Origin: Actinoallomurus spadix
GTDB taxonomy: Bacteria; Actinomycetota; Actinomycetes; Streptosporangiales; Streptosporangiaceae
Assembly: GCF_024055725.1 (NCBI RefSeq)
Contig: NZ_JAMXMX010000001.1
Location: forward strand, 186,001 to 250,000
Direction: 5' to 3'
Length of the DNA: 64,000 nt
Made by a program: the position numbers and the translations under genes. Position 1 is the first letter of the stretch. Each line of letters begins with the position of its first letter. Of this stretch, positions 4,637 through 46,044 are shown in pieces. The notes under the pieces are model-generated. The model saw only the letters and a list, made by a program, of their open reading frames with translations, did no database searches and was not told where the DNA came from.

Positions 4637-5923
4637 GTGAGCGCCGGGCGCACCGACGGGCAGATCACCAGGGGACTGGTCCGGTACGTTCCGGCGGCCG
4701 TCCTCGCGCGGGGCGCGGACGGCGGGGCGGCGGTGGGTCTCGTCCTGCTCGCCATGGACCCGGGCCTCCGGCTGCCCGGGGCCGCCGCGACCGGCGGCCT
4801 CCTGGCGGGCGCGCTGAGCGCGCCGCACCTGCTCGGGCCCTGGACGGCCCGCCGGCTGGACCACGCCCGCGACGCCCGGTGGGTCCTCGCGGCGGCCTTC
4901 CTGGTCTACGCGGCGGCGCTGGCGGCCGGGTCGCTGCTGCTGGGCCGGGCCCCCGTCTGGACGGCGGTCGCGGCGGTGGCCGCCGCCGGCTGCTGCGGCC
5001 CGCTCCTCACCGGAGGGTTGAGCAGCCGGCTGCCCGGCACGTCCGGGGCCGACGGCAAGGCCCGGCGCCGCGCCCAGGGCTGGGACGCCCTGACGTACGG
5101 CATCGGCGGCACGGCCGGCCCGGCCGCGGTCGCCGGGCTGGCGGGGCTGTTCGGGCCCCTGACCGCGATGCTCGCGCTGAGCGGCGCGGCCGCCCTCGCC
5201 GCCGGGCTCGCGCCGACCCTGTCCTTGGAGCGCTCCAACAACGCGTCCGCGGACCCCGCGCCGGGCGTCCTCGCGGGCATCGGAGTGCTCGTCGGGGCCG
5301 CGCCTCTGCGGCGGGTGACCACACTGACCCTGCTGGGCGCGCTCGGCATGGGCGCGCTGCCGGTCATCGCCGCCGTGCTCGGCCCGCACCTGACCGGCCG
5401 GCCCGGCGCGGGCGCCACCCTGACCGTCGCGTACGGGCTCGGCAACCTCGGCGGCTCCCTGCTCGCCACGATCTTCCCGCTGCGCGGGGAGCCCGAACGG
5501 CTCGCGCTCCGCCTGTTCGCCGCCGTGGCCGTGACCTTCGTCCTCGGCGCGCTGGCGCCGGGGTTCGCCCTGACCCTCGTCGCCTTCGCGCTCGTCGGGG
5601 TCGCCAACGCGCTCTCCTTCACCGCGACGCTGACCGCCCGCACGGCGTACGCGCCGGTCACGGCCCGCGCGCAGGTGTTCGTGACCAGCGCCGGGCTGAA
5701 GGTCGCGGTGTCCTCGGCCGGATCCGCGGCGGCCGGCGCGATGGCCGGCCTGGGCGGCCGTACGCTGCTCCTGCTGTGCTCCGGAGTCGGTGTCGCCGCC
5801 CTCCTGTCCGCCGGCGCGGACCGCCTGGCCTGCGACCGGCGGCAGCGCGGGAACCCGGCAGCGCGGGACCCGGCGTGCGAGCCGGCGGACCCGCCGATCA
5901 GGGCGCGGCGCGCGTCGGGCTGA
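4637..5923 (+). CDS. MFS transporter, 12 TM, putative exporter
   Basis: A 428-residue membrane protein starting at GTG 4637 with GGGAGATGAGG upstream. Residues ~20-400 form about 12 hydrophobic segments in two halves; the halves are joined near residue 200 by a loop (LSLERSNNASADPAPG). The helices are rich in Gly and Ala. The short C-terminal tail is basic. Family resemblance is to small MFS exporters with no fixed substrate. It is divergent from the secreted hydrolase and has its own palindromic operator, so it looks like a separately regulated one-gene unit. It ends 3 bp from the convergent oxidoreductase gene with no obvious terminator between. Confidence 0.82.
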   Translation: MSAGRTDGQITRGLVRYVPAAVLARGADGGAAVGLVLLAMDPGLRLPGAAATGGLLAGALSAPHLLGPWTARRLDHARDARWVLAAAFLVYAAALAAGSLLLGRAPVWTAVAAVAAAGCCGPLLTGGLSSRLPGTSGADGKARRRAQGWDALTYGIGGTAGPAAVAGLAGLFGPLTAMLALSGAAALAAGLAPTLSLERSNNASADPAPGVLAGIGVLVGAAPLRRVTTLTLLGALGMGALPVIAAVLGPHLTGRPGAGATLTVAYGLGNLGGSLLATIFPLRGEPERLALRLFAAVAVTFVLGALAPGFALTLVAFALVGVANALSFTATLTARTAYAPVTARAQVFVTSAGLKVAVSSAGSAAAGAMAGLGGRTLLLLCSGVGVAALLSAGADRLACDRRQRGNPAARDPACEPADPPIRARRASG

Positions 5924-43900: not shown

Positions 43901-43958
43901 CCCGCGCGACGGCCCGCGCCGCCTGACCTGGGGTCCGGCGACGCGGGCCGCGGGTCAG
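43897..43958. terminator. Two-tier hairpin between convergent genes
   Basis: CTGACCCGCG (43897-43906) pairs with CGCGGGTCAG (43949-43958). An inner stem GGCCCGCG/CGCGGGCC (43911-43918/43942-43949) can form as an alternative or stacked tier. Both convergent stop codons lie in it. Confidence 0.6.
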
Positions 43959-44782
43959 GCGCCGTCGAGGACCAGCAGCGTGGCCGCGGCCGACTCGTCC
44001 ACGAGGGCGACACGGATCTCTTCGGGCCGGTAGTGCCGCAGCGGCACCGCGAAGACCGCCGTGGCGAGCCGCCCCTCGTACTCCGCGGTGTAGCAGAGCA
44101 CGCGGACGTCCTCCTCGTCCCAGCTCTCCCTCAGCCCGGACCGCAGCAGCCCGCCGACCTGCCGGTACGCCGTGCTGCCGTGGAGCTGCTGGAGACTGGA
44201 CTCCAGCGGCATGTCGAACGACCGGTCGGCGAGCGGGTGCCGGAGGCGTACCCGCAGCCGCCGCAGGGGATACAGCCACCGCCGGTCCGCCTCCGGCGAG
44301 AACGCGACCAGCGCCGCGGCCTCACCGACGAGCAGCGTCCCGGCCGCCCAGGGGTGACCGGCCGCCGCGTCCCACCAGGGGCCCGCCCGCGTGCCGAGCA
44401 GCGCCGCGGCCAGGATCAGCCCGGCCCGGGCGAAGCCGCGCCAGGTCACCGGCGTGGGACGCGCGCTCATGCAGCCGCACGAGGAGCCCGGCGCGGCGAT
44501 CCGGGCGTACGCCAGGTACGCCAGGAACCCGGTGGCGAGCACGGCGGCCGCCACGGCCTCGCCCGCGTACACCGGCGGCGCCAGGAGGGCGGCCGCCAGC
44601 AGCAGTTCCACGGCGCCGGTCAGCCGGTAGACGGCAGGTGCCCGTTCCTCGCCGACCAGTGACCGCAACGCGGACCGCCGCGCGGCGCGGCCGGCTGACA
44701 AGCCGGCGCACTTGAGGCCGCCCGACCACAGCAGCGTCGCGCCGACGAACAACGGCTGTACCGACGCCGGCCACTCGGCCAT
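43955..44782 (-). CDS. MauE/DoxX-like membrane protein with C-terminal soluble domain
   Basis: 275 residues with ATG 44782 after GGAAGGAGG. Four TM segments (about residues 8-24, 55-75, 78-98 and 115-160) form the MauE/DoxX-type bundle, with a Cys cluster GSSCGCMS in a loop after TM3. MauE is needed for disulfide-rich methylamine dehydrogenase small subunit maturation, and DoxX relatives are quinone-linked thiol oxidoreductases. A soluble C-terminus (~175-275, FDMPLESSLQQLHGS...) is extra. It is third in a minus-strand operon with a Tat-exported protein and a 17-Cys protein, which suggests it oxidises them. Confidence 0.82.
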   Translation of the reverse strand: MAEWPASVQPLFVGATLLWSGGLKCAGLSAGRAARRSALRSLVGEERAPAVYRLTGAVELLLAAALLAPPVYAGEAVAAAVLATGFLAYLAYARIAAPGSSCGCMSARPTPVTWRGFARAGLILAAALLGTRAGPWWDAAAGHPWAAGTLLVGEAAALVAFSPEADRRWLYPLRRLRVRLRHPLADRSFDMPLESSLQQLHGSTAYRQVGGLLRSGLRESWDEEDVRVLCYTAEYEGRLATAVFAVPLRHYRPEEIRVALVDESAAATLLVLDGA

Positions 44783-44801
44783 GGGGATCGCCTCCTTCCG
44801 G

Positions 44802-45404
44802 TCACGCGCCCGAGTAGACGGTCGCGACGTCCACCTCGTTGGTGTCGGGACGCCAGGCCCCGATCACCTTGACGTGCCGGCCGACCTGCAGGCGGGTCAG
44901 GTCGGCGACCGCGGGCGCGGAGCCGTACACCGCGGCGGTCCTGCCGCCGACGACGTGGCCGATCACCCGCTTGCCGTTGTGGTCGAGGTGCAGGCGTGCG
45001 GCCTCGATGGCGGCGATCGACGCGTCCAGGTTGACGATGTTCACCCAGATTGCGTCCGCGGCCAGCGAGCCGTCCGGCAGGCGGACACCGCGGGCGTAGA
45101 ACCCGTCGCCGACCTTGATCTGGTCGAAGGTCGTCGGGTGCAGCTTCCAGATGCTGGTGCCGTCCGTGACGTGGACGCGGTGCAGGGTCCGGTCGGAGCC
45201 GGAGGCCCTGAGCAGGGAGCCGCTGATGCCGGTGATGCGGCCTTCGGCGAAGTTCGGGTCGAGGGCGCCCGGGTCGAGCTTGATCTTGGGAGGGGCGGCG
45301 AAGGCGGCCTCGGGGGCCAGCGACCCGAGGGCGGTCGCGCCGGCGACGGCGGAACCGCCGAGCACGGCGGAGGTGAGGAAACGACGGCGGTCTGGCTGGG
45401 GCAT
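44802..45404 (-). CDS. Tat-exported OB-fold-like protein
   Basis: 200 residues with a twin-Arg signal (PQPDRRRFLTSAVLGGSAVAGATALGSLAPEAAFA) cleaved after AFA, so it is exported folded. The mature part has repeated small beta units, e.g. RITGISGSLLRASG, HRVHVTDGTSIWKL, VGDGFYARGVRLPDGSLAADAIWVNIVNLDA and QVGRHVKVIGAW, resembling the DUF5666-like OB fold. No Cys in the mature part. It lies 14 bp after the Cys-rich gene and 20 bp before the MauE-like gene. Folded export would suit a protein that binds a cofactor or a disulfide-rich partner before export. Confidence 0.85.
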   Translation of the reverse strand: MPQPDRRRFLTSAVLGGSAVAGATALGSLAPEAAFAAPPKIKLDPGALDPNFAEGRITGISGSLLRASGSDRTLHRVHVTDGTSIWKLHPTTFDQIKVGDGFYARGVRLPDGSLAADAIWVNIVNLDASIAAIEAARLHLDHNGKRVIGHVVGGRTAAVYGSAPAVADLTRLQVGRHVKVIGAWRPDTNEVDVATVYSGA

Positions 45405-45418
45405 GGCGGGGCCTCCGG

Positions 45419-45844
45419 TCAGCTGTCGATACGGGCGGGGGACAGCCCGGTCGAGAGGTCGGCGATGGCGCTGTAGGCCGAGGGCGTCAGGTCGATGATC
45501 CGGTTGGTGTAACAGGTCGACCCGCAGCAGGAACGTTCGCCGCAGAAGGGGTTGGTGTCCGGGCCGCAGTCGGCGATCGACACGCTCACGCACTTGCCGC
45601 TGCAGACGCTCGTCACGTAGAAGACGTGGCCGCACGTGCGCCGAGCCAGGCCCTCGCCGCACTGGTCGGGATGGGTGATCCCGAAGCAGGCGTCGGACGT
45701 GTTCGGCCACGCGCACTGGTGCGAGCCGGAGTTGCAGGTGCCGCAGGCCCCGTGCCCGGCGCTTCCGCAGGGGCCCCAGGAGCTACCGCAGCAGAACCAG
45801 GACATCTCTCCGTACGCGGGAGAGCCGCTGTTGGAACAGCCCAT
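45419..45844 (-). CDS. Cysteine-rich (17 Cys) double-psi beta-barrel-like protein
   Basis: 141 residues from ATG 45844 (CGGAGACAGAG upstream). The N-terminal half is a dense Cys/Gly/Ser region (FCCGSSWGPCGSAGHGACGTC...) and lacks a hydrophobic signal. The C-terminal half looks like a barwin/RlpA-type DPBB: CGHVFYVTSVCSGKCVSVSIADCGP, then IIDLTPSAYSAIADLSTG, the usual DPBB ending. 17 Cys predict many disulfides. With no signal peptide, export could be by piggyback on the adjacent Tat protein. Whether it cuts glycan, binds it, or carries a modified Trp is unknown. Confidence 0.83.
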   Translation of the reverse strand: MGCSNSGSPAYGEMSWFCCGSSWGPCGSAGHGACGTCNSGSHQCAWPNTSDACFGITHPDQCGEGLARRTCGHVFYVTSVCSGKCVSVSIADCGPDTNPFCGERSCCGSTCYTNRIIDLTPSAYSAIADLSTGLSPARIDS

Positions 45845-45897
45845 TCTCTGTCTCCGTTCGTTCGTTCCGACGTGACGGGCCTGCCCGGGTGCCCCTG

Positions 45898-45947
45898 ATC
45901 GTGAAGAAGGAAACTTTCGCCGTCAACAGATCGCTAAAAGGAAACTT
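45898..45947 (-). promoter_or_regulatory. Promoter and paired AAGGAAACTT elements of the Cys-rich operon
   Basis: On the minus strand TTGACG (45921-45926) and CACGAT (45898-45903) are 17 bp apart. On the plus strand AAGGAAACTT occurs at 45907-45916 and 45938-45947, 31 bp (about three turns) apart. One copy falls in the promoter spacer and the other upstream, as expected for cooperative repression. The extended form, GGAAA-C-TTTC, is a partial palindrome. Confidence 0.5.
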
Positions 45948-46044
45948 CCTACAAGCCGCCCCCCGTGCGATTGGCAGAACCGTGCTTCTGCCCTTGTCGC
46001 GCGAACCGTCCGGTGTGCCGCCCATCACCCGCCCTGGCCACACC

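What the first reader, a model, noticed from the sequence alone, without database searches (positions are those of the whole stretch)
43955..45947. Three-gene unit: 17-Cys DPBB-like protein, Tat-exported protein and MauE-like oxidase
One promoter drives three tightly spaced genes. The first encodes a 141-residue protein with 17 Cys and a barwin/RlpA-like end but no signal peptide. The second has a twin-Arg signal and no Cys in its mature part. The third is a MauE/DoxX-type membrane protein with a GSSCGCMS loop. The simplest model is that the Cys-rich protein folds with, and is carried out by, the Tat protein while the MauE-like protein forms its disulfides, by analogy with methylamine dehydrogenase maturation. 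I know no described system with this make-up.
Basis: partly seen in the sequence, partly recalled or inferred. Interest (0 to 1): 0.75.

Follow-up and report, generated by a model that had tools for sequence, protein, structure and literature searches.

The report
Three-gene unit exporting a cysteine-rich protein
Scattered actinobacteria carry a fixed set of three adjacent genes that most likely builds, disulfide-bonds and exports a small cysteine-rich cell-wall-type protein on the back of a partner; the set is real and conserved, and nothing like it turned up in our literature searches.

Summary
The 17-Cys protein (CYS, 45419-45844), the Tat-signal protein (TAT, 44802-45404) and the MauE-like protein (MAU, 43955-44782) sit in this order in all 46 actinobacterial loci counted. 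In 150 genomes of the family, close CYS and close TAT matches fall in the same 10.

A second, fused version in the host's family joins a TAT-like and a CYS-like half in one chain, again followed by a MauE with the same extra C-terminal domain. This is good evidence that TAT and CYS act as one complex. A joined AlphaFold model (pTM 0.43) gave no confident interface.

CYS models as a double-psi barrel nearest to PA4485, kiwellin, loosenin and expansin. It has 14 invariant Cys.

Oxidation, if that is the job, may precede Tat export.

The window's promoter carries two imperfect CsnR-type boxes. In two genomes of the genus, such boxes precede several chitin-degradation-type genes, which suggests a role on chitin or fungal walls; outside the genus this link is weak.

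Disulfides, export and chitin binding remain untested.

The parts
45419..45844 (-). CYS: 141-aa Cys-rich double-psi beta-barrel protein without signal peptide; 17 Cys, 14 of them invariant; invariant W16, W23, W46, D92, D118
44802..45404 (-). TAT: 200-aa protein with twin-Arg signal; mature part modelled as beta domains whose best matches are tandem OB-fold proteins, weak DUF5666 match
43955..44782 (-). MAU: 275-aa MauE-family membrane protein, CGC motif at residues 102-104, plus a conserved C-terminal domain (about residues 163-275) without a Pfam match
45908..45920 (-). CsnR-box-like palindrome GCGAAAGTTTCCT (2 mismatches to AGGAAANTTTCCT); the only such match in the 64-kb window (0.10 expected)
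45921..45926 (-). TTGACG, possible -35 hexamer between the two palindromes (read by eye)
45939..45950 (-). second palindrome AGGAAGTTTCCT (12-nt form, 1 mismatch; this shorter form is mine, not a published consensus)

Best explanation
The unit makes an exported two-protein complex. CYS, which has no signal, folds in the cytoplasm onto TAT, a Tat-targeted tandem-OB protein, and crosses the membrane as its passenger. MAU, a MauE-type membrane protein whose invariant CGC loop probably faces the cytoplasm, handles the Cys of CYS (most likely forming disulfides) before the folded complex is exported. Outside, CYS works as a kiwellin/loosenin/expansin-like wall protein. In Actinoallomurus its genes appear to belong to a ROK-repressed chitin/chitosan response. 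Shown by computation: conservation of the trio, no signal on CYS, Tat signal on TAT, the fused homologue, the barrel fold, the boxes. Inferred: complex formation, export, the redox role and side of MAU, and the substrate.
For: Trio present in 46 of 46 loci counted; the same 10 of 150 family genomes have close CYS and close TAT; no other gene was shared by all 37 loci compared. Fusion: TAT vs N-half of the fused protein hhalign score 43.3, E 1.8e-6; CYS vs C-half 45.8, E 3.4e-7; crossed controls 15.2 and 12.8; 20 column shuffles at most 23.7. The MAU C-domain is shared with the MauE next to the fused gene, E 3.7e-15. 14 Cys, CGC and RR are invariant in 46 of 46. Fold. CGC side. Boxes: published 13-nt form within 2 mismatches in 5 of 46 upstream regions (0.2 expected), or 14 of 46 (0.7 expected) when 12- and 14-nt forms are allowed; in two genomes of the genus such boxes stand by LPMO_10, GH18, GH20, CBM5/12 and ROK genes.
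Against: The joined model has pTM 0.43. The fused homologue has probably lost a usable signal and keeps a CGC...C..C..C pattern that could bind zinc in the cytoplasm; by my reading only 1 of 21 and 2 of 21 members keep Asp at the D92 and D118 places. The topology is from hydropathy and Lys/Arg counts only. The window box has 2 mismatches, and 53 such places exist genome-wide against 33 for the reversed pattern. One of five Actinoallomurus loci, L041, has no box within 3 mismatches. Outside the genus the 13-nt form is within 2 mismatches only in L053, and none of 30 exact boxes in five other trio genomes is at the trio.
Confidence: 0.42

Rival explanations
1. One reading: CYS rides out with TAT reduced or partly folded, and MAU forms its disulfides on the outer face, as proposed for MauE and the methylamine dehydrogenase beta-subunit.
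For: MauE family match; MauE 'speculated' to form disulfides (passage of PMC7794033); trio and fusion as above.
Against: Charge pattern puts the CGC loop inside in 45 of 46 and 18 of 19. No MauD/thioredoxin-like gene turned up among the genes shared across genera. Tat normally carries folded cargo (established knowledge).
Confidence: 0.25
2. CYS (and the fused homologue) is a cytoplasmic metal-binding protein with reduced Cys; TAT is exported alone and MAU acts in metal or thiol homeostasis.
For: No signal on CYS; the fused protein lacks a usable signal and has CGC...C..C..C; an ECF sigma-like gene (my reading) stands divergent to the fused gene in 19 of 19 loci, though other neighbours are shared in 18 of 19 too.
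Against: Best fold matches are mostly secreted, Cys-rich proteins such as kiwellin and loosenin. TAT with its signal accompanies CYS in 46 of 46 loci counted. The fusion implies a shared compartment for both halves.
Confidence: 0.18
3. CYS is the small subunit of an unknown exported oxidoreductase with a cofactor made from its invariant Trp and Cys, as in quinone-cofactor amine dehydrogenases; MAU helps to mature it.
For: Three invariant Trp and 14 invariant Cys; MauE link.
Against: No Pfam or NCBIfam match of CYS to any dehydrogenase; fold is an expansin-like barrel; no large subunit in the unit.
Confidence: 0.07

Closest known systems
Tat hitchhiker export (PaoABC in PMC4273604, start of abstract in the listing; hydrogenases and formate dehydrogenases in passages of PMC10924467)
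   Same: A subunit without signal is paired with one that carries a twin-Arg signal
   Different: No known cofactor enzyme; a dedicated MauE-type protein is part of the unit; co-export not shown
MauE/MauD maturation of methylamine dehydrogenase (recalled, and passage of PMC7794033)
   Same: MauE-family protein with CxC next to a Cys-rich partner
   Different: No dehydrogenase, no MauD seen; MAU has an extra C-terminal domain; CGC loop predicted inside
Kiwellin / barwin (PR-4) proteins of plants (PMC9813671, passages)
   Same: Double-psi barrel with a Cys-rich N-terminal stretch
   Different: Bacterial; no sequence-profile match. That paper detected no kiwellins in bacteria, archaea or viruses. 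Disulfide pattern of CYS unknown
Expansins and loosenins (PMC9888185, passages)
   Same: Barrel fold; D118 falls on the Asp of IDMTP in loosenin 9ce9 in a weak alignment; that it is the Asp82 of BsEXLX1, essential per the paper, is my inference
   Different: No CBM63 domain, no own signal peptide, more Cys
decRiPPter candidate clusters with a mauE homologue and a precursor of at least 8 Cys in Streptomyces (PMC7794033, passages)
   Same: MauE homologue beside a Cys-rich gene, the nearest printed hint
   Different: Read there as possible peptide natural products; no Tat partner mentioned in the passages seen; whether any is this trio could not be checked
CsnR regulon (PMC6097792, passages)
   Same: AGGAAANTTTCCT-type boxes at the promoter
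   Different: Imperfect boxes; binding not shown; CYS is not a chitosanase

Membership tests
Tat hitchhiker pair | Twin-Arg signal on one partner only | tested here: met
   RR in 46 of 46 TAT; CYS N-termini non-hydrophobic
Tat hitchhiker pair | The two proteins form a complex | tested here: inconclusive
   Natural fusion speaks for it; joined AlphaFold model pTM 0.43 gives no support
Tat hitchhiker pair | Export of the passenger depends on the partner | not testable with these tools
   needs fractionation
MauE family (PF07291) | Profile match over cut-off | tested here: met
   54 bits against 27
mau (methylamine dehydrogenase) maturation | MauD and dehydrogenase subunits nearby | tested here: not met
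   only the trio is found in all 37 loci compared; no such Pfam match among the six window proteins scanned
DPBB_1 / RlpA-type | Pfam DPBB_1 over cut-off | tested here: not met
   18.8, 19.6, 18.0 and 24.7 bits in four members against 28.8
Kiwellin / barwin | Double-psi barrel fold | tested here: met
   AlphaFold pLDDT 80.5, pTM 0.76; Foldseek kiwellin 4x9u E 1.3e-4, TM-score 0.49
Kiwellin / barwin | Disulfide-rich N-terminal extension (kissper type) | tested here: inconclusive
   Cys-rich in sequence, but residues 21-40 are modelled poorly (pLDDT 59-62)
Kiwellin / barwin | Family sequence profile | tested here: not met
   no Pfam match other than DPBB_1 at E up to 1
Expansin / loosenin | Conserved catalytic-line Asp | tested here: met
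   D118 in 46 of 46; its equivalence rests on a weak alignment to loosenin 9ce9 (stretch i-Evalue 11, whole E 0.021)
Expansin | Second domain (CBM63) | tested here: not met
   141 aa, single barrel
CsnR-type regulon | Box AGGAAANTTTCCT at promoter | tested here: inconclusive
   one 2-mismatch site and one 12-nt 1-mismatch site in the window; enriched over 46 loci, weak outside Actinoallomurus
CsnR-type regulon | Binding and induction by chitosan | not testable with these tools
   needs gel shift and expression

The most novel reading that the evidence does not exclude
A dedicated, cytoplasm-facing MauE-type oxidase forms up to seven disulfides in a signal-less kiwellin-like protein before Tat export, so that a disulfide-rich wall protein leaves the cell already oxidised as a passenger of an OB-fold carrier, and the set is switched on by chitin or chitosan as a weapon or tool against fungal walls.
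Probability: 0.2. Interest if true: 0.85.

Novelty: new variant of a known kind. Interest (0 to 1): 0.62.

Why it matters
Most disulfides of exported bacterial proteins are thought to form after export (general knowledge). A conserved three-gene set that pairs a signal-less, 14-Cys protein with a Tat carrier and its own MauE-type protein is a clean test case for whether a membrane oxidase can prepare disulfides before Tat transport. It also gives a setting in which to test the little-studied MauE family and DUF5666-like Tat proteins, and points to a bacterial look-alike of plant kiwellins that may act on chitin.

Tried and rejected
Methylamine dehydrogenase itself: no matching subunit. Plain RlpA transglycosylase: below the Pfam cut-off. 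A link to fungal CBM1 (4bmf, E 0.074) and a hevein-like CC...C pattern (recalled) were judged too weak to claim. Neighbour genes as clue to function: beside the trio the next gene shared under more than two genus labels reached 4 of 37 loci, apart from frames overlapping the trio; two further clusters reached 11 and 6 loci but only Kribbella and Catellatospora. Phylum search with the alignment found the own genome and two weak matches in 396 genomes, with at most 10 candidates scored per genome; neither weak match was resolved (for G338, one search printed other frames and one search found no fused relative; L079 was not examined). Plasmids: one match, 72 residues in the MAU C-terminal domain. 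The exact 12-nt box in five other trio genomes: one site, not at the trio. The exact 13-nt box there: 30 sites, none at the trio coordinates; their genes were not annotated. A topology control with a MauE of proven orientation was not made.

Rows dropped before counts: L003 (same locus as L008), L074 (several trio copies, one frame-broken) and L076 (partial match only) were left out of the 46. MAU of L053 is cut by the contig end. The 46 hold at least two pairs with equal identity values that are probably the same strain from two collections (L010/L040, L012/L051); these pairs also count twice among the boxes. An earlier count said that no TAT protein has Cys; one search corrects this to 35 of 46.

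Full report
Observation. The window holds three minus-strand genes as described: CYS 45419-45844, TAT 44802-45404, MAU 43955-44782. The window is part of contig C11 of an 8.0-Mb genome close to Actinoallomurus soli (CYS 96%, TAT 97%, MAU 90% identical in L039).

The trio is a real unit. The genome-contig scan gave 38 loci and a family sample of 150 genomes gave 10 close matches. After dropping L003, L074 and L076, 46 loci were counted: all have CYS, TAT, MAU in that order, with gaps of 1-22 and 1-187 nt; MAU of L053 is cut by the contig end. At least two pairs among the 46 are probably the same strain. Close TAT matches were found in the same 10 of 150 genomes as close CYS matches; two further genomes have weak TAT matches that were not examined. 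A comparison of 37 loci of 5.5-10.4 kb under 17 genus labels (two of them my own labels for an unnamed Micromonosporaceae MAG and for 'Streptomyces sp. SID13031') found the trio in all 37. Apart from frames overlapping the trio, the next gene shared under more than two labels reached 4 loci under 3 labels; frames under 90 aa or weaker than E 1e-15 would be missed. In a class sample 5 of 394 genomes have CYS at E<=1e-5, two of them in another family; both of those also have TAT and MAU. A phylum sample gave only the own genome and two weak, unresolved matches in 396. These searches score a limited number of candidates per genome. The unit is thus rare and patchy; the exceptions to completeness seen are L074 (frame breaks in a tandem copy) and L076 (fragments).

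Conserved features. In 46 CYS proteins 14 Cys, W16, W23, W46, D92 and D118 are invariant. TAT has RR in all and three invariant Trp. MAU has invariant C102-G-C104. Pairwise distances of the three proteins correlate (r 0.68, 0.71, 0.90), which shared descent alone could give. CYS N-termini are not hydrophobic (15-residue maximum 0.11-1.19, median 0.70) while TAT signals are (1.45-1.97, median 1.68).

The fused homologue. The weaker CYS matches that I read in the host's family (21) are one protein of 309-343 aa; a MauE follows it in 19 of 19 loci. Profile comparison joins its N-half to TAT (score 43.3, E 1.8e-6 for one comparison) and its C-half to CYS (45.8, E 3.4e-7). The crossed pairings score 15.2 and 12.8, and 20 column shuffles reach at most 23.7. 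The extra C-terminal domain of MAU matches that of its MauE neighbour (E 3.7e-15). The fused form is found in 40 of 394 class genomes, all in the host's family, including the host (L009/L097). Such a fusion is classical evidence for a TAT-CYS complex. Against a simple export story, its N-terminus has RR and then only a short hydrophobic run (30 of 30 by reading, several from the same genomes; the start was chosen by RR). The hydropathy maximum there is 0.08-1.69, median 0.57, so at least one member reaches the range of true signals. It is probably not exported. By reading, 1 of 21 members has Asp at the D92 place (L020) and 2 of 21 at the D118 place (L019, L029).

Folds. AlphaFold of CYS alone: pLDDT 80.5, pTM 0.76. 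Foldseek: PA4485 and kiwellin (E 1.3e-4 each), loosenin, expansins, Streptomyces papain inhibitor, then more weakly GH45, cerato-platanin and barwin; TM-scores over the query are about 0.4-0.5. D118 falls on the loosenin Asp in a weak alignment; the Asp82 of BsEXLX1 is essential (passage of PMC9888185), and that the two correspond is my inference. CYS and TAT read as one chain through the stop codon: the TAT part is confident and its best matches are OB-type proteins (S1, cold-shock, Mpa), though with low TM-scores; overall pTM is 0.43, so the interface is not predicted.

Topology of MAU. Hydropathy and Lys/Arg counting give mostly five helices (34 of 46) and the CGC loop inside in 45 of 46; for MauE beside the fused gene 18 of 19 inside. 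The method is crude, and no MauE of proven topology was run.

Regulation. Upstream of CYS lie two palindromes around a TTGACG. The 13-nt form is the CsnR box AGGAAANTTTCCT of chitosanase promoters (passages of PMC6097792; a CsnR site is quoted in PMC4856308). In the window the promoter site is the only match within 2 mismatches (0.10 expected). Over 46 loci the 13-nt form is within 2 mismatches in 5 (0.2 expected): four of five Actinoallomurus loci, two of which are probably one strain, and Micromonospora L053; L041, the fifth Actinoallomurus, has none within 3. With 12- and 14-nt forms of my own allowed, 14 of 46 (0.7 expected). In the own genome the five sites with at most one mismatch lie by an LPMO_10 gene, a CBM5/12 protein, a ROK regulator with a sugar-binding protein, an RpiR regulator with a BadF-type kinase, and an IMP-dehydrogenase-type gene with an AsnC-type regulator; Pfam describes LPMO_10 as cellulose-degrading, so chitin is my reading there. 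In G135 nine sites (reversed control 0) include GH18+CBM2, GH20, CBM5/12, ROK with binding protein, and a second ROK, that is 5 of 9; two lie by secreted-looking genes with no Pfam name, one by a carboxylesterase, and the gene at one site (L154) was not scanned. This makes a chitin/chitosan link plausible in Actinoallomurus only. In five other trio genomes none of 30 exact boxes is at the trio. Genome-wide, 2-mismatch sites are only 53 against 33 for the reversed pattern, so a single such site proves nothing; its place and repetition do the work.

Literature. Four searches aimed at the trio or its MauE listed no paper that describes it; I saw listings only, of an open-access library. The nearest hint is decRiPPter's Streptomyces clusters with a mauE homologue and a precursor of at least 8 Cys (passages of PMC7794033); its supplement was not read, so overlap is possible. 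The kiwellin survey reports none in bacteria (passages of PMC9813671).

Verdict. Real and conserved; the co-folding part of the first idea is supported by the fusion; the outside-facing oxidase part is doubtful; a chitin-related role is a new, testable proposal.

Noticed in passing
L097 (own genome C66:318000-334500): Fused TAT-CYS paralogue with its own MauE in the host genome; an ECF sigma-like gene (my reading) stands divergent to the fused gene in 19 of 19 loci, in a stretch where other neighbours are also shared.
   Followed up: partly
L007 (own genome C2:60554-60886): A MauE paralogue that runs into a glutaredoxin-like C-terminal part with CRYC, on the same predicted side as its CGC loop (read).
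   Followed up: no
L133 (own genome C11:177476, about 54 kb from the trio): A LPMO_10 gene behind a one-mismatch CsnR-type box on the same contig.
   Followed up: partly
L074 1-5521: Fodinicola feengrottensis has two trio copies and the start of a third in tandem, the first with apparent frame breaks in CYS and TAT.
   Followed up: no
L076 about 5001-5351: Actinomadura sp. DC4 has only a piece of CYS next to the end of MAU, perhaps a remnant.
   Followed up: no
46 trio loci, 220 bp upstream of CYS: CATTGACG and AAAGTTTC octamers (either strand) recur in 14 and 13 of 46 upstream regions; a fuller regulatory motif probably exists.
   Followed up: partly
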